DNA from: Steinernema hermaphroditum
Taxonomy: Eukaryota; Nematoda; Chromadorea; Rhabditida; Steinernematidae
DNA length: 64,000 nucleotides
Assembly: GCA_030435675.1 (NCBI GenBank)
Contig: CM059625.1
Coordinates: 6,386,001 to 6,450,000, forward strand
Direction of reading: 5' to 3'
In this document: piece after piece, positions 23,901 to 31,938 of the stretch
How positions within the stretch are numbered: position 1 is the stretch's first letter
How the letters are laid out: every line of letters starts with the position of its first letter
Notes under the pieces: generated by a model
What the model was told of the DNA's origin: nothing
Database searches by the model: none
What the model saw: only the letters and a program-made list of their open reading frames with translations
Position numbers and translations under genes: made by a program

Positions 23901-25680
23901 AGTGTAAGTCAACCACTTCAAACAAAATAAAGCAAAGACGAGCTGCTTTAGACAGTTCTGTGCGGAATCATTTCGGAACGGCTGACTCTTTCCTTCCGAG
24001 TCAGAGCATTGCGCAATATCCTTTACCAGGACGCGGCTTACTTCGACAATCCACAGCATACGGCCGGAAAACTGATCACCCGTCTGGCCACAGATGCTCC
24101 GAACGTGAAGGCTCTTATCGACAGTCGCATGTTACAAGTGGTCTACTGTGTAGCCTCCTTGTTGACCGAGATCATCATTTGCTTCATTTACTCCTGGCAA
24201 ATTGCCATTGTTGGCACCGGATTGGCTTTTCTTCTGGGAATCATGCAGATCGTTCTCGCACACTTTATCCAGAAACGAAACATGGATCTCATCAAGAACG
24301 ACGAAGCAGGAAGAGTTGGTTTACGGGAACAGCAACCGAACATAATCGGCCATTTTCCAGACAGCCATTGAAATCATCGAAAACGTACGAACAATTCAGC
24401 TCTTGACGAGAGAAGGCGTCTTTTATGAGCGTTATGAGCAGTGCTCCAAAGGACAGAAATGGAACGAAATGGGCCGTGCTTGGTTGGAAGCGGCCAACTA
24501 CAGTATCTCGCAGACCTTCCAATATTTCATGACGGCAGTTACATACGCTCTTGGTATCCATGTGATCTCAATGGGACAGAAGAGCCCAGATCATGTTTTC
24601 CAGTAAGACACAGTGAAAATATTTGCGTATTTATGGAGTGCTTTAGGGGAATCGTCGCCATGATGATGGCCGCTGTTGCCGTCATGGATGGGGCTGCCTA
24701 TTTCCCTGAGTTCGTCAAGGCGAGGACGGCGTCTGGAATGCTATTCTCAATGATTTTCAGAAAGCCAAAGACTGGAGACTCAAGTGTTGGTGAAAAGATG
24801 GTTAGGTGTAATATGTCTGGCCATTATCATGAAGTCATTCGTTTAGAATTTGCAAGGAAACATTCACTTCAAGCATGTGAAATTCACTTATCCACAACGT
24901 CCACGACAACCTGTTATGACCGATCTGAACTTCAACGCTAATAGAGGTCAGACAGTTGCGCTGGTAGGACCGTCTGGTTCCGGCAAGAGTACGGTAATTT
25001 CGATGATCGAACGATTCTATGATCCAACTGGCGGCGCTGTGGTATGCTGTTCAATAGTTGTTCTCGTATAATGTATTGCTGCCTAGCTGTTCGATGGACG
25101 AGACCTGAAAGAGTTGAGTTTGGATCACTTCAGAACTCAAGTTGCATTAGTCGGCCAGGAGCCTCGTTTGTTCGCCGGAACTATTAAAGAAAACATATGC
25201 TTTGGCCTTGGAGATACAGTATCAGGTGCCGAAGTAGACAAAGCGGTGGAACTCGCAAACGCGAAACGTTTCCTAAGCAATCTGCCGCAAGGTCTCGACA
25301 CGGAGGTTGGAGAGAAAGGAACTCAAATGTCGGGTGGACAGAAACAGCGCATCGCGATTGCGCGCGCCTTGGTTCGAAATCCGAAGATTCTCCTGTTGGA
25401 CGAAGCCACAAGTGCGCTTGATTCGGAATCGGAGAGGGTAAGCGGAGCCAGCTCGCCGCTCATTCAAGGTGATCCTGTTTAGGCTGTACAACAGGCGTTG
25501 GACAACGCCAGAGAAGGCCGAACGTGCATTACGATAGCCCATCGTCTTTCTTCCATTCAGAATTCTGACCTCATCCTCTTCATCGAAAACGGAAAAGTGA
25601 GAGAAAGTGGAAATCACAGCAGTCTGATGGCAAAGAAGGGCAAATATTACGATCTGATCAAGAAGCAGGATCTGAATTAG
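20968..25680 (+). CDS. pgp: P-glycoprotein, full ABCB-type multidrug exporter
   Basis: Sixteen exons: 20968-21149, 21196-21250, 21301-21525, 21570-21703, 21749-22334, 22377-22555, 22600-22766, 22813-23069, 23115-23350, 23393-23903, 23952-24314, 24361-24602, 24647-24800, 24847-25041, 25087-25437, 25483-25680. They encode 1344 residues, the usual size for a full TMD-NBD-TMD-NBD exporter. NBD1 has Walker A GHSGCGKST (split by an intron), [13 protein letters not shown] and [15 protein letters not shown]2 has [22 protein letters not shown] and [12 protein letters not shown], and each half has an H-loop (AHRLS). All key residues are present, so it should be active. It is a plasma-membrane pump for hydrophobic toxins and drugs. 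TTACAG ends 17 bases before the ATG. Intron 11 uses a GTTGGT donor. Confidence 0.93.
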
Positions 25681-26044: not shown

Positions 26045-26053
26045 ATAAGTTGA
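26045..26053 (+). repeat. Outer target-site duplication, left copy
   Basis: ATAAGTTGA, directly abutting the element end; identical copy at 29812-29820. Confidence 0.88.
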
Positions 26054-26061
26054 GGTTGTGT

Positions 26062-26207
26062 GACAATAGATCCCCGGGACAATAGATCCCGGGACAATAG
26101 ATCCCGGGGACAATAGATCCCGACGGGACAACAGATCCCCGGGACAATAGATCCCTGGGACAATAGATCCCGGGGATAATAGATCCCGGGGACGATAGAT
26201 CCTGGGG
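26062..26207 (+). repeat. Terminal minisatellite, outer left end
   Basis: About nine tandem copies of a 15-18 bp unit of the form GGGACAATAGATCCC with small spacer changes (one CGACGGGACAAC variant). The unit is itself nearly palindromic across junctions (GGGATC/GATCCC). Confidence 0.9.
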
Positions 26208-26311
26208 AAAACAGAAGAAAGATAATACATTTCGTTTTCCAGTTAAAACAACTCAGACATTTGCAAAATAATTTATTGTTTAACAACGCTATGAACAAAA
26301 GTAACATTTGC

Positions 26312-26434
26312 TTGTTGCATTTCGAGCATTTCCAGACTACATACTTGTTGCATTTCGAGCATTTCCAGACTACATACTTGTTGCATTTCGAGCATTTCCA
26401 GACTACATACTTGTTGCATTTCGAGCATTTCCAG
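26312..26434 (+). repeat. 33-bp tandem repeat, about 3.7 copies
   Basis: Perfect copies of a 33-bp unit beginning TTGTTGCATTTCGAGCATTT at 26312, 26345, 26378 and 26411 (last copy partial). It lies just beyond the 3' end of the transposase frame, inside the outer element. Confidence 0.92.
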
Positions 26435-27246
26435 ATTTAAACCTTAAGATATAACATTCGTCACACATGGACACAACAGCTTACACTTGCCAACTCAATG
26501 TTGAAGTCGGCGTCAGTTTGAAACATATCGTTTTCATCGTTTCGTGCAAGTATCGAAACGGACTTCTTAGCACAATTGAATGCTTGGTGGCGACAATAAC
26601 GCACTAATATATCGAGATCGGGATCTTCTCCCTCTTCAAGTTGAGCCAAATAAAGACTCAGCTTCTCTTTCGCATTCTGAACACGCCGCTCCGATTCGCT
26701 ATAGACAGTTGCTCTCATGCGAATATCACGCTGACGTCTTAGAAGTTGTAGCGCGCGTGTTGCACTCGCATTAATCTCCTTTCTCATGACAGATAGAAAA
26801 CGTCCAAAAGATGGATGATTCGACGGGAAAACAGCACGGAGCTGGTTATGCCATCCCTCAGCGTGATTCGTCGTCCGTGGGCCGTCATTATCAAAATGTG
26901 ACTAAGAGTTACGGTATCTCGCCCAGTAATCATTGAAGTACTGGAACAATTGTCGAATCTTGGCATTTTCGGCCGGTTCATAAGATTGCGGCATGTTCTC
27001 GCGAAGATAATCCAAAATCAAGTGCCAGTAAGAGTTTGGAGCTTGCGCAGATCCAATGAACGTTCTGATCCACGTGCAGAAGGAGGCGTTCGTGGAACGG
27101 TCGTAAATAGCTTTCAAGCCTAATGTGGCAACTTTGTCCATCACGTTCTATAAATGCAACACGAAATGTGCCACATCTAACATATTCTAACCTTCGAAAA
27201 ATGAAAGTAGCATGACTTCACTGTTGAGTTTCGAAAAACCTGCTTT

Positions 27247-27255
27247 GCAGCATTC
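27247..27255 (+). repeat. Inner target-site duplication, left copy
   Basis: GCAGCATTC, identical to 29017-29025; on the coding strand it is GAATGCTGC within the transposase NAA codons. Confidence 0.88.
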
Positions 27256-27263
27256 GGTTGTGT

Positions 27264-27393
27264 GACAATAGATCCCCGGGACAATAGATCCCGGGACAAT
27301 AGATCCCGGGGACAATAGATCCCGACGGGACAACAGATCCCCGGGACAATAGATCCCGGGGATAATAGATCCCGGGGACGATAGATCCTGGGG
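27264..27393 (+). repeat. Terminal minisatellite, inner left end
   Basis: GACAATAGATCCC unit array, one unit shorter than the outer left array, otherwise the same order of variants. Confidence 0.9.
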
Positions 27394-27620
27394 AAAACAG
27401 AAGAAAGATAATACATTTCGTTTTCCAGTTAAAACAACTCACAAGGGAAGTACACAACATGACCCCCGCCGATTTGGCTGAAATTTGGTGCACTGATAGA
27501 TCTTGGGGAGAGTAGTAACCGTGCAAAAAATTAGCTGCCCATACCGGGTAGATTTCGAGAAAAATGTACTTTTAAATTTGCTATTGTGGTTATGTTGTTC
27601 TAATGCATGAGTGTTGAGAG

Positions 27621-27690
27621 CGTACAGGTGGTCGAGGGGTAACACTTCAGAACCGCGTATTTTGGTTTCGGGTTCGAATCCCAGTGGAAA
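27621..27690 (+). other. tRNA-like pol III promoter boxes, left arm
   Basis: A-box-like TGGTCGAGGGG at 27629-27639 and a perfect B-box GGTTCGAATCC at 27671-27681, spaced as in a tRNA gene. A complete cloverleaf is not evident, so it is more likely a tRNA-derived relic than a functional tRNA. Confidence 0.55.
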
Positions 27691-28082
27691 CAATTCCTTT
27701 TATCTTTCCTTTCCTTGTTTCTCTGGGTGTAAATTTCACGTTAGCACAGTTCTCCCGATTCGAAAATGTGTTATTCTTGAAATGCAAAGATGACAGATGT
27801 CCAAATCGCAGCACTGAAATCCACAGCGCTACAGAAAGCGACCAAACATCAAGATGTGGTGTATCTCAATGCCCTGGGTGTCCTGATCACTTTCTCAAAT
27901 TATTAGCGGACGTCGATAACATGATGGCTAAAACTGGTCTCAACATGATTCTTATAGTTGGCATAAAGAGATGATATATGGATACGAAAAAATTACTTCG
28001 TGATTTTCTCTTTTTTTTTGCGACGAAATGCAGTAAAAGGCAGTTAGATACAAATGATAAAACGAATGAAAAATCACGACTT

Positions 28083-28150
28083 CTGATGGGAATCGAACCC
28101 GGGTGTACCGCCTGTCAGGCAAGACTGTTACCACTGAACTATTGAGACAC
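28083..28150 (-). other. tRNA-Gly-like pseudogene or SINE head at the palindrome centre
   Basis: On the minus strand, AGTTCAGTGGTAACAG, then TTGCCTGACAGGCGG, then CCCGGGTTCGATTCCC follow the order and spacing of a tRNA-Gly(GCC) D arm, anticodon arm and T arm. The anticodon position reads GAC rather than GCC, and acceptor and T stems pair poorly, so it is probably a decayed copy. A-box and B-box are intact. Confidence 0.6.
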
Positions 28151-28459
28151 AGTCGATTCGCCATCGTTGTCGTACTATGATACGTTTTTACGTAAAGTTG
28201 ATCATCTTGATGCCAGTTTTAGTCCCAGTGTAACCGACGGCCGCTAATATTTTGAGAACGTGCTTAGGACACAATGCCTTCATGTTTGGTCACTTTCTTT
28301 AGCGCTGTGGATTTCAGTGTTGAGATTTGGTCATCTGTAATCCTTGCATTTTAAGAAGATTTTGCATTTCAAGAATAACGCATTTTCGAATCGGGAGAAC
28401 TGTGCTAACGTGAAATTTACACCCAGAGAAACAAGGAAAGGAAAGATAAAAGGAATTGT

Positions 28460-28530
28460 TTCCACTGGGATTCGAACCCGAAACCAAAATACGCGGTTCT
28501 GAAGTGTTACCCCTCGACCACCTGTACGCT
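28460..28530 (-). other. tRNA-like pol III promoter boxes, right arm
   Basis: Mirror copy of the left-arm sequence: B-box complement GGATTCGAACC at 28468-28478 and A-box complement CCCCTCGACCA at 28510-28520. Confidence 0.55.
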
Positions 28531-28863
28531 CTCAACACTCCTGCATTAGAACAACATAACCACAATAGCAAATTTAAAAGTACATTTTTCTCGAAATCTA
28601 CCCGGTATGGGCAGCTAATTTTTTGCACGGTTACTACTCTCCCCAAGATCTATCAGTGCACCAAATTTCAGCCAAATCGGCGGGGGTCATGTTGTGTACT
28701 TCCCTTGTGAGTGACGAATCACGGAACACAAAGAGCAGATACGTAAAAAATTTCGATAATCTGTTTTCTTATTCCCGTTATTGCGAAAATGACGGGAATA
28801 AGACGTTGTAGGACCAATTCGCTGTAGGATACTCCTGATCCTCAGGCGAAGGATTTGTTCTTT

Positions 28864-29010
28864 CCGGGGATCTGTTTTCCCCGGGATCTATTTTCCCAGG
28901 GATCTATTGTCCCAGGGATCCATTGTCCTGGGGATCTGTTGTCCCGTCGGGATCTATTGTCCCCGGGATCTATTGTCCCGGGATCTATTGTCCCGGGGAT
29001 CTATTGTCCA
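28864..29010 (-). repeat. Terminal minisatellite, inner right end
   Basis: Inverse-orientation array nearly identical to 29659-29805, with a few substitutions such as ATTTTCCCAG for ATTGTCCCAG. Confidence 0.9.
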
Positions 29011-29016
29011 TATACC

Positions 29017-29025
29017 GCAGCATTC
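29017..29025 (+). repeat. Inner target-site duplication, right copy
   Basis: GCAGCATTC, identical to 27247-27255. Confidence 0.88.
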
Positions 29026-29658
29026 ATTGCTGCCGGTTCCATGTCAAAGTGGAACACTTTAGCCACGCGGGTGTCCCCGAACTCTAGCAGCAGAGCGTCC
29101 CGAATGTGTTGAAACATCAACTTATAGTCAGCTGTATCCTTCGTAGGCAGCAGCGCCGTAACACTCAAAACCGATTCCGAACGGTCGGGCAATTCCTAAC
29201 GATACTCGATTAGAAGTTGAAAAGAATGTACGGCACCACCTGATAGATTGCATGTAACGTATACAACTGGCGAAAAGCCGACCCTGCTTGCGGCTGGTAC
29301 TTAAAATTGCCGTCGCACGAGATGTGCTCACAACATCGAAAAGCGGCTAGACCAACAACAGACGCCATAACAACCATAGGCTTTTTCGTAGCATCGGTTT
29401 CGTGATAAATTATCCACGTGTTGTCATTTAAATTGTTGCCGATACCTACAGGCCTAGGAGATAGTGGTGCCTAAGTAGCAAATGCCAGAGCTATTTTACA
29501 ATCGCAACTCCAAAAATACCTGTAGCTCCTGAGGAATAGGAGTGTGAAACGTGTCAATATTTAGAAACGATGACGGGAAAAAAATGACGGGAATAAGACG
29601 TTGTAGGACCAATTCGTTGTAGGATACTCCTGATCCTCAGGCGAAGGATTTGTTCTTT

Positions 29659-29805
29659 CCGGGGATCTGTTTTCCCCGGGATCTATTGTCCCAGGGATCT
29701 ATTGTCCCAGGGATCCATTGTCCCGGGGATCTGTTGTCCCGTCGGGATCTATTGTCCCCGGGATCTATTGTCCCGGGATCTATTGTCCCGGGGATCTATT
29801 GTCCA
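29659..29805 (-). repeat. Terminal minisatellite, outer right end
   Basis: The same unit array in inverse orientation (GGGATCTATTGTCCC), including the same CGTCGGGATC variant at the matching place. Confidence 0.9.
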
Positions 29806-29811
29806 TATACC

Positions 29812-29820
29812 ATAAGTTGA
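29812..29820 (+). repeat. Outer target-site duplication, right copy
   Basis: ATAAGTTGA, directly abutting the element end; identical copy at 26045-26053. Confidence 0.88.
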
Positions 29821-30079
29821 AAGTGGTGGCCAATGAAAGCTTAGTTACTAATTACGGAGAAGGCCAGAAAGTAACGAAAAAGATCACAGATCGATTCACG
29901 GTTTCTATATGATTTCTTTTTATCGTTACCGCAAAAAAAGAAAACACGTCTGACTGGGCGAACTTTTCGTACTTTCATCGTCTCATACCAAAAATCGCAA
30001 CCATAGAGCACCCTTATCGCCGCCAAATAAAGTGGAGGTGCTAGTTACCGTTTGTTCTCCCTTGCTTCCCCATGCCGAC
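29821..30079. other. Gap between transposon and amino-acid transporter
   Basis: Probably the promoter of the SLC7 gene. A short frame (ending VTKKITDRFTVSI) is continuous across the reconstructed empty insertion site but has no recognised homology. Confidence 0.4.
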
Positions 30080-31938
30080 ATGTCGTCTTCCCGCGAAAAA
30101 CATCAAATCGGCGCTTTGGCGGCAGTCGCCTACTGTGCGGGAGATATGATAGGCTCTGGGATATTCATATCTCCAACAGCTATTCTCTCCCATACAGGCT
30201 CCGTCGCCCTTTCGCTGATTGTTTGGGTTGCCTGTGCGGTGATCGCCGTTGTCGGGGCCCTTGTCTACATAGAACTAGGGACAAGCATTCGACGTTCGGG
30301 TTGTGATTTCGCCTACTTATCACATGCAGAATGGTAACAATATATATTTATTGTCGTTATAGCTCAGCAAGTCCCTTCCAGGCATTTTCTGGCGGTGGCG
30401 TTCCTGTGGGTCGGAGTGGTCATCCAGTCGCCGTGCGTACTCGCCATTCAGTCAACAGCTTTATCACAGAATATTGTCGGTGGAGTCCAGATTTACTACC
30501 ATATGAACGCGGGTTTACAATACCTGTTGGAAAAGCTGATCGCCATCGCCGTCTTATGTACATATACACTCAGTTAGCCTGCAAATCGTACTTTTACTTT
30601 AAGTGCTGCTCGGCCTTCTTAACATGTTTTCGCTTAAGCAGTGGGCATCCAAGTTCCAAATCGTGGCTTTTACGGCTAAAATTCTGACTACAATCCTAAT
30701 CATAGGCGCAGGAATTTACTATATCGCATTTCAAGGTAATCCTGTTCAGACAGGTCCATTATTGCTGATTTAGAAAAATACAAATCCTTCAACGACGCCT
30801 TTGAAAACAGCACCAAAAATCCAGGAGAAATAGTGCTTGCTCTCTATGCTGGACTTTTCGCCTACGAGGGATGGTGTATACTAAATTATGGTCTCGAGGA
30901 AATCGCAAATCCGAAAAGGTATCTCAGGTTCAACATTCCTGCTAATCATAGGCATTGAGGGTGCTTCCTATTGCGGCATTAGGAGGAATTGGAATTTCCG
31001 CCACCGTCTATGTGCTTATGAACGTGTCATACTTTGCTTTATTGACCGTAGATGAATTCAAGAGTTCGGATGCAGTTGCTGTTGTAAGTGGCAGTGTATC
31101 GACAAGAATTTACATATTCCACTTCTAAGACCTCTTGTGCCATACTGTATTTTTGGCTTTAGGCCTTCTCGAAAAAGGCGCTTTCCGGATTTGCACCTGT
31201 TCTACCGTTTCTCATCGCCCTTCTTCTTTTGAGTAATCTCAATACAACAATCTTCAGTGGTAGTCGGTAGCTACGACGCCAACAAAACTTATGTTTTTTT
31301 TTCTCTATTTAGGCATTTACTAGCAGGTGCCCAACGACGCGTTGCGCCTACCGTCTTCTCCCTCATCGATCAATCGTCGGGTTCTCCTCGAATTGCCATT
31401 GTCACTGAGGTTATCCTTCATTTTCCACCACAAAATACGCATCGATTTCAGCTCGTTTTTGGCGTAGCCATGCTTTTTGCCGGGGATCTAAGTCGTTTGA
31501 TCAGCTACATGACCTTTGCTGGAATGCTAGAACGCGTGTCAGTGGTGCTTGCCCTCTTCTATATGCGTTACAAAAAGACTCCAATGCATCCTGAAGGCAT
31601 CCGATATCCGATTATTCTACCACTTCTCTTTCTCTGCATTAACATCACTCTGCTAGTGATTCCACTAATCCTAGACTTTACCGTAGCCCTTTATGGCTTG
31701 GCAGCAGTTTTTTTCGGCCTCCTCGTCTATTTTTTATTCATATTCCCCAATCAACTCCCGATGTGGCTGATGAAAATGGACGGTATGATAAACTTTTCTC
31801 TTATTGAGGAAGAACACTCATTTAGAGGGTGTGTCCAACGTAGTACAACGGATATTCGGTTTGGAACCATCGGCGTTCATACCGGATGAATGCGTAATGC
31901 ACAAGAAAGTAGTTTCTGTTGTAAACGTGATAATTTAG
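30080..31938 (+). CDS. SLC7-family amino-acid transporter (LAT/AAT catalytic subunit)
   Basis: Nine exons (30080-30333, 30382-30557, 30604-30735, 30774-30918, 30960-31083, 31163-31266, 31313-31409, 31452-31782, 31826-31938) encode 491 residues, the usual size of a 12-helix light chain. TM1 carries the substrate-site motif GDMIGSGIFISP. Others include GLFAYEGWCILNYGLEEIANPKR, VLMNVSYFALLTVDEF and SNLNTTIFSGSRHLLAGAQR, all family landmarks. Such transporters exchange neutral or basic amino acids at the plasma membrane, some with a glycoprotein heavy chain. I place the start at 30080 because MSSSREKHQIGALAAVAYC matches the family N-terminus. Exon 5 uses an ATTGAG acceptor, slightly unusual. Confidence 0.9.

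What the first reader, a model, noticed from the sequence alone, without database searches (positions are those of the whole stretch)
26045..29820. MULE inside a MULE, each with its own perfect 9-bp target duplication
The outer element (26054-29811) is flanked by ATAAGTTGA and the inner one (27256-29016) by GCAGCATTC. The inner insertion lies within the outer element's transposase gene. Removing it plus one 9-bp copy brings FDMEPAAMNAA directly into frame with the following KQVFRNSTVKSCYFHF segment. Both have the same ends, so a non-autonomous family member hit its own likely helper. This gives an order of events and a direct test of cross-mobilisation.
Basis: partly seen in the sequence, partly recalled or inferred. 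Interest (0 to 1): 0.8.

Follow-up and report, generated by a model that had tools for sequence, protein, structure and literature searches.

The report
Jumping gene inside its own relative
In the genome of an insect-killing nematode, one defective jumping gene has landed inside another defective member of the same family, and a sister copy elsewhere still shows the untouched site; it is a clean example of known behaviour rather than a new kind of element.

Summary
An outer element (26054-29811, 9-bp duplication ATAAGTTGA) contains a second element of the same family (27256-29016, GCAGCATTC). All 7 family copies found with both ends have 8-9 bp duplications; the four whose flanks I compared sit in unrelated surroundings. 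A C1 copy is the outer element without the insertion (2 substitutions in 1,922 compared bases), so nature shows the empty site. The host is Steinernema hermaphroditum. A catalytic segment passes Pfam's MULE cut-off, and the ends resemble Tm1, a Mutator/Foldback family of root-knot nematodes.

The 'likely helper' needs correcting. The outer element lacks the N-terminal exon and has an in-frame stop, both shared with the C1 copy, so this lineage was already defective when it last moved and was mobilised in trans. No copy found holds all transposase parts.

A third layer exists: the inner element's middle (27442-28707) is a separate dispersed inverted-repeat element with 3-bp TNA duplications. 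Its flanks here (TCA, TGA) fit two different native target sites of the parent, suggesting a deletion between two such insertions.

New family member, ordinary mechanism.

The parts
26054..29811 (.). outer MULE, 3758 bp including the inner insertion; transposase remnant on the - strand
   Evidence: TIR and TSD; sister copy at C1:12134319-12136240
26045..26053 (.). outer TSD, left, ATAAGTTGA
29812..29820 (.). outer TSD, right, ATAAGTTGA
26054..26208 (+). outer left TIR: asymmetric end GGTTGTGTG plus array of 16-bp units (9)
29662..29811 (-). outer right TIR: asymmetric end GGTATATGG plus array of 16-bp units (9)
26311..26435 (.). 33-bp minisatellite between transposase stop and left TIR; 4 units here, 2 in the C1 copy
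26461..26901 (-). C-terminal transposase segment, open to its stop
26902..27147 (-). transposase segment NVMDK...RYRNS ending at a premature in-frame stop shared with the C1 copy
27148..27191 (-). probable 44-nt intron (HFSK | NVMDK), as also used in the public gene model
   Evidence: inferred from sequence; model P0002
27192..27255 (-). transposase segment downstream of the inner insertion (KQVFRNSTVKSCYFHFSK)
27256..29016 (.). inner MULE derivative, 1761 bp, no transposase; sister at C4:560323-562101
27247..27255 (.). inner TSD, left, GCAGCATTC
29017..29025 (.). inner TSD, right, GCAGCATTC
27442..28707 (.). third layer: separate inverted-repeat element CAAGGG...CCCTTG, 1266 bp, with arms of about 350 nt, dispersed in the genome
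27439..27441 (.). left flank TCA of the inverted-repeat element (native CTCAG site of the MULE)
28708..28710 (.). right flank TGA of the inverted-repeat element (native CTGAG site of the MULE)
29017..29195 (-). catalytic transposase segment with FHFDMEPAAMNA
   Evidence: (same segment in the C1 copy)
29240..29470 (-). transposase segment with CDGNFKYQP; followed by a probable 44-nt intron 29196-29239
   Evidence: intron inferred

Best explanation
Shown: a 1.76-kb internally deleted member of a Foldback-type MULE family (probably Phantom subclass) inserted into the transposase remnant of another member, duplicating 9 bp of target; by parsimony this came after the outer copy and its C1 sister had separated. 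Shown: the outer member carries two lesions that its sister shares. Inferred: both were cut and pasted by the same family transposase supplied in trans from a copy that is absent from, or was not found in, this assembly. Also inferred, with less confidence (about 0.6 taken alone): the inner derivative arose when two copies of an unrelated inverted-repeat element, inserted at two CTNAG sites of a full-length MULE, became one by deletion of everything between them. The product stands at two sites (C4 and here), so it moved at least once carrying that element as cargo. The confidence given is for nesting and trans-mobilisation.
For: TSDs in 7 of 7 two-ended copies. Natural empty site in the C1 copy: 2 substitutions in 1136+786 compared bases and one 66-bp minisatellite difference. 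The site is also unoccupied in C5 and in the roughly 90% related C2:14680831 copy. Shared stop and missing N-terminal exon in outer and C1. Inner and C4:560323 differ by 1 substitution in 1761 compared bases plus 16-base and 2-base gaps, and share both deletion junctions. MULE domain above cut-off; conserved DG.F, D.E and C.FH motifs in an alignment of the public model with 6 relatives. TNA duplications in 14 of 15 two-ended inverted-repeat copies, mismatched in the inner element exactly where the parent has CTCAG and CTGAG.
Against: No intact helper was found: the parts at 98-100% identity are scattered over different copies, so trans-mobilisation is inferred from relics, and the searches give lower bounds. 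The two-insertion deletion goes one step beyond the data: no copy with a single or both insertions was seen. A hybrid-of-inverted-copies version of it was tested and failed. One other inverted-repeat copy (L096/L097, C2:1283353) also has mismatched TCA/TGA flanks; its wider surroundings were not read, so such mismatches may have another cause. The public gene model at the locus scores below the MULE cut-off (20.1 against 27.6).
Confidence: 0.85

Rival explanations
1. The outer element was the active helper and was killed by the inner insertion.
For: It is the longest two-ended copy (3758 bp with the insertion) and retains catalytic transposase segments.
Against: The N-terminal exon is missing and a premature stop is present, both shared with the uninterrupted C1 sister.
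Confidence: 0.04
2. Inner and outer were placed together by recombination, segmental duplication or misassembly rather than transposition.
For: Family TIRs are long and nearly identical, which favours both recombination and misassembly.
Against: Exact 9-bp duplications around both elements; natural empty site; no flank similarity in the 4 of 7 copies compared; a sister of the inner element stands on C4 with its own duplication.
Confidence: 0.03
3. Concerning the third layer only: the inverted-repeat middle of the inner element was captured as filler during double-strand-break repair (abortive gap repair) with 4-base microhomology on both sides, not left by two insertions.
For: Its flanks lack a matching TSD, and the other two-ended MULE copies are deletion forms too. 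Internal deletion by abortive gap repair is recalled as the usual route for DNA transposons.
Against: A whole element with exact ends lies there, and the two parental sites are both perfect CTNAG targets of that element.
Confidence: 0.3

Closest known systems
Tm1 Mutator/Foldback family, Meloidogyne (PMC3169594; abstract, sections 6 and 9 and passages read)
   Same: Composite TIRs with 1-9 short tandem units (mostly 14 bp there, 16 bp here); asymmetric terminal motifs A1/A2 outside the inverted repeat; TSDs of 8-10, mostly 9 bp (45 of 53 there); MULE domain; intron-containing transposase gene; many non-autonomous copies.
   Different: Terminal and unit sequences differ. FLYWCH is not recognised by Pfam in the N-terminal exon here. 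No intact autonomous copy found here.
Phantom MULEs of animals (PMC6446971, passages read)
   Same: MULE transposase with FLYWCH-carrying relatives; TSD 8-10 bp; minisatellite after the transposase ORF listed for aphids, and a 33-bp one here.
   Different: No tree was built here, so clade membership is not tested.
Nested insertions in coding MULEs of maize and rice (PMC3903597, abstract and passages read)
   Same: More than one third of candidate coding MULEs there carry nested insertions; a Tourist-like MITE inside MULEs is described in rice.
   Different: Mostly LTR retrotransposons in maize; in the passages read no same-family insertion with an empty sister copy was described.
PIF/Harbinger-type MITEs and Turmoil-1 of C. 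elegans (recalled; PMC2572040 seen only as listing with start of abstract)
   Same: 3-bp TNA-type duplication and inverted-repeat structure of the third-layer element.
   Different: No transposase was sought or linked to it here; assignment is a lead only.

Membership tests
Mutator-like elements (MULE) | MULE transposase domain (PF10551) | tested here: met
   29.2 bits, cut-off 27.6, on the C1 sister's catalytic segment; the public gene model at the window locus scores 20.1, below the cut-off, and the window's own short pieces gave no hit
Mutator-like elements (MULE) | 8-11 bp target site duplication (range as in PMC6446971) | tested here: met
   7 of 7 two-ended copies, 8 or 9 bp
Mutator-like elements (MULE) | long terminal inverted repeats | tested here: met
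   148-nt arms, 94% complementary
Foldback-type TIRs as in Tm1 | tandem short units and asymmetric terminal motifs outside the repeat | tested here: met
   16-bp units, 6-9 per end, GGTTGTGTG versus GGTATATGG in 7 of 7
Phantom subclass | N-terminal FLYWCH zinc finger | tested here: inconclusive
   No FLYWCH hit in the 128-aa N-terminal exon of the C5 copy, although 14 of the 20 best-ranked rows for a distant hit (P0004, itself among the 20) carry PF04500 with PF10551
Phantom subclass | phylogenetic placement | not tested
   no tree built
Autonomous element | complete transposase gene between functional ends | tested here: not met
   outer element lacks the N-terminal exon and has a stop
PIF/Harbinger-like MITE (third layer) | 3-bp TSD | tested here: met
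   identical TNA flanks in 14 of 15 two-ended copies; 5 of 20 copies set aside because one end was not found
PIF/Harbinger-like MITE (third layer) | link to a Harbinger transposase | not tested
   no search made

The most novel reading that the evidence does not exclude
The inner MULE behaves as an intron of the outer gene. The public gene model (QR680_001201, P0002) skips it; the join that fits uses a donor GT one base inside the MULE's own end and an acceptor in the target, rejoining the frame with the loss of two residues. If transcripts confirm this, these MULE ends carry a ready splice donor, and insertion into exons could create introns, as proposed for introners (recalled). A second open reading is that the family prefers to land in or near its own copies: one of 7 insertions is nested and two others lie 55 bp apart, which chance gives at about 7e-4 and 3e-5 (computed after the fact).
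Probability: 0.08. Interest if true: 0.6.

Novelty: new member of a known kind. Interest (0 to 1): 0.3.

Why it matters
It gives a record, ordered by nesting, of trans-mobilisation in a young MULE family of a nematode used in laboratory work. The untouched sister site is in the same genome, and the case suggests how deletion derivatives arise and spread without an intact helper in view. It also warns that the public gene model at this locus is a composite over two transposons. The mechanism itself is known.

Tried and rejected
Helper reading of the outer element: rejected on lesions shared with the C1 sister. Segmental duplication: no flank similarity among the 4 of 7 copies compared. Inverted-hybrid origin of the third-layer element (predicting that its right arm is of left-arm type): failed. 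In 6 of 6 ordinary copies the arms are 92-96% alike, and the inner right arm is not consistently closer to left arms. tRNA-derived origin of the third-layer element (box-like GGTTCGAATCC by eye): ARAGORN found 0 tRNAs (bacterial code), Rfam 0 matches at E up to 0.1. A more distant open-framed relative at C1:9188713 as helper: no match to the 16-bp unit core (up to 2 mismatches) in the 821 bp fetched, which end just inside its N-terminal match; two loose end-like matches there look like chance. Divergent relatives: scans of 13 loci gave 3 with a TSD-flanked pair of family-like ends (L075, L078, L079); the general scan also gave chance-like pairs in L077 and L079. These scans were conditioned on TSDs, so they are not counted as evidence. 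First Pfam call on 5 short pieces of the outer gene gave no MULE hit. The literature search for nematode MULEs with '9-bp' found 0 papers and also missed the Tm1 paper, which writes '9 bp'; one search found it.

Full report
Observation. The genome held for this window (G000, 90,648,085 bases in 60 contigs, window at C5:6386001-6450000) belongs to Steinernema hermaphroditum, judged from proteins named for that species on a contig of 18,392,284 bases, the length of C5.

The family. The exact 16-base end occurs 8 times. Seven copies have both ends: outer (3758 bp), inner (1761), C1:12134319 (1922), C4:560323 (1779), C2:2920374 (1277), C4:8931718 (685) and C4:8932458 (790). Five have 9-bp and two 8-bp duplications, all of different sequence. 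The eighth, C5:2149838, is truncated after about 1,567 bp and has an internal deletion. Each two-ended copy has GGTTGTGTG at one end and GGTATATGG at the other, with arrays of 6-9 units of 16 bp. Apart from two sister pairs (outer with C1, inner with C4:560323) they are different deletion forms. The N-terminal exon at 98% or more is found only in C5 and C4:8932458 (2 of 19 matches). The catalytic part at 99% or more is found only in outer, C1 and C5 (4 of 10 match rows, three loci). The C-terminal segment at 98% or more is in outer, C1, C2 and, in part, C4:8931718 (4 of 31 matches). No copy found holds all parts; these searches give lower bounds.

Order of events. The C1 copy is the outer element without the inner one: 1 substitution in 1136 compared bases left of the site, 1 in 786 right of it, and two 33-bp units fewer. 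Its sequence runs ...TTTGCAGCATTCATTGCTGCC..., with one copy of the 9 bases. The C5 copy is also unoccupied there, as is a roughly 90% related copy on C2. So the empty state is most simply ancestral, and the frame FDMEPAAMNAAKQVF is read in nature. The inner element and its C4 sister differ by 1 substitution in 1761 compared bases, one 16-bp unit and 2 bases. Both pairs are therefore young; no clock was applied.

Helper. Outer and C1 share an in-frame stop (absent from the C2 and C5 copies) and lack the N-terminal exon. They sit at different sites with their own duplications, so at least one of them moved after the lesions were in place, which requires transposase in trans. The same holds for the inner type, which carries no transposase. 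The outer element is thus a fellow dependant, not the helper. A distant relative with open frames at C1:9188713 shows no matching unit in the 821 bp fetched, almost all upstream of its N-terminal match.

Identity. The C1 catalytic segment scores 29.2 bits against PF10551 (cut-off 27.6). The public model at the window locus scores 20.1, below the cut-off. In an alignment with 6 relatives, the motifs CDGNF, FDME and CYFHF fall on conserved columns. Of the 20 best-ranked rows for one distant hit (P0004, itself included; 193 found, 120 listed), 14 carry both FLYWCH and MULE domains, but FLYWCH itself was not found in the N-terminal exon. The architecture closely resembles Tm1 of Meloidogyne (PMC3169594: abstract, sections 6 and 9 and passages read).

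Third layer. The inner element's middle, 27442-28707, is a separate repeat with arms of about 350 nt and 88 match rows across the genome, its own included. Among 20 copies whose ends I fetched, 15 showed both ends, and 14 of 15 have identical 3-bp TNA flanks; the target reads CTNAG, or CTAAA in one. In the inner MULE the flanks are TCA and TGA. The parental MULE has CTCAG at the left junction and CTGAG at the right junction. The simplest reading is two insertions reduced to one by deletion, which also explains the missing transposase. Against it: the one mismatched copy of the 15 also shows TCA/TGA, and a version with inverted insertions was tested and failed. Filler DNA at a repair junction remains possible.

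Gene model. Two public proteins map here. P0002 skips the inner MULE as if it were an intron (MNAA|VFRNST, two residues lost) and uses two short introns that I also infer. P0001 starts inside the inner MULE's left part. Whether transcripts support these is unknown.

Literature. Searches for Steinernema with MULE and transposon (0 papers), for nematode MULE with '9-bp' duplication (0 papers, though the Tm1 paper exists and writes '9 bp'), for S. hermaphroditum with genome terms (1 and 10 papers, listings only) and for nested MULE insertions (27 papers, 12 listed, one of these read in part) showed no description of this family. The library holds open-licence papers only, so this does not establish absence from print. 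Nested insertions in MULEs, including MITEs, are described in maize and rice (PMC3903597, abstract and passages).

Verdict. Confirmed, young, well documented by a natural empty site, and ordinary in mechanism; the helper claim is corrected. Wording was narrowed where only 4 of 7 flanks had been compared, and 'moved at least twice' was reduced to 'at least once'.

Noticed in passing
L072 1019-2548 (C4:8931718-8933247): Two different deletion derivatives of the family lie 55 bp apart in opposite orientation, each with its own duplication, in a tract with several TTTGGTAC-like words.
   Followed up: partly
window 27148-29470, - strand: Public proteins QR680_001201 (P0001, P0002) are composites over the two nested MULEs.
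   Followed up: partly
L086 1906-3800: The C5 copy of the MULE stops abruptly beside sequence that looks by eye like a retrotransposon gag/protease (not tested).
   Followed up: no
L131 (C2:1283335-1284645): An inverted-repeat element copy with mismatched TCA/TGA flanks, like the one in the inner MULE.
   Followed up: no
window 25087-25482 and 29954-30337: The outer MULE lies between an ABC transporter segment (PF00005) and an amino acid permease segment (PF13520), both on the + strand.
   Followed up: partly
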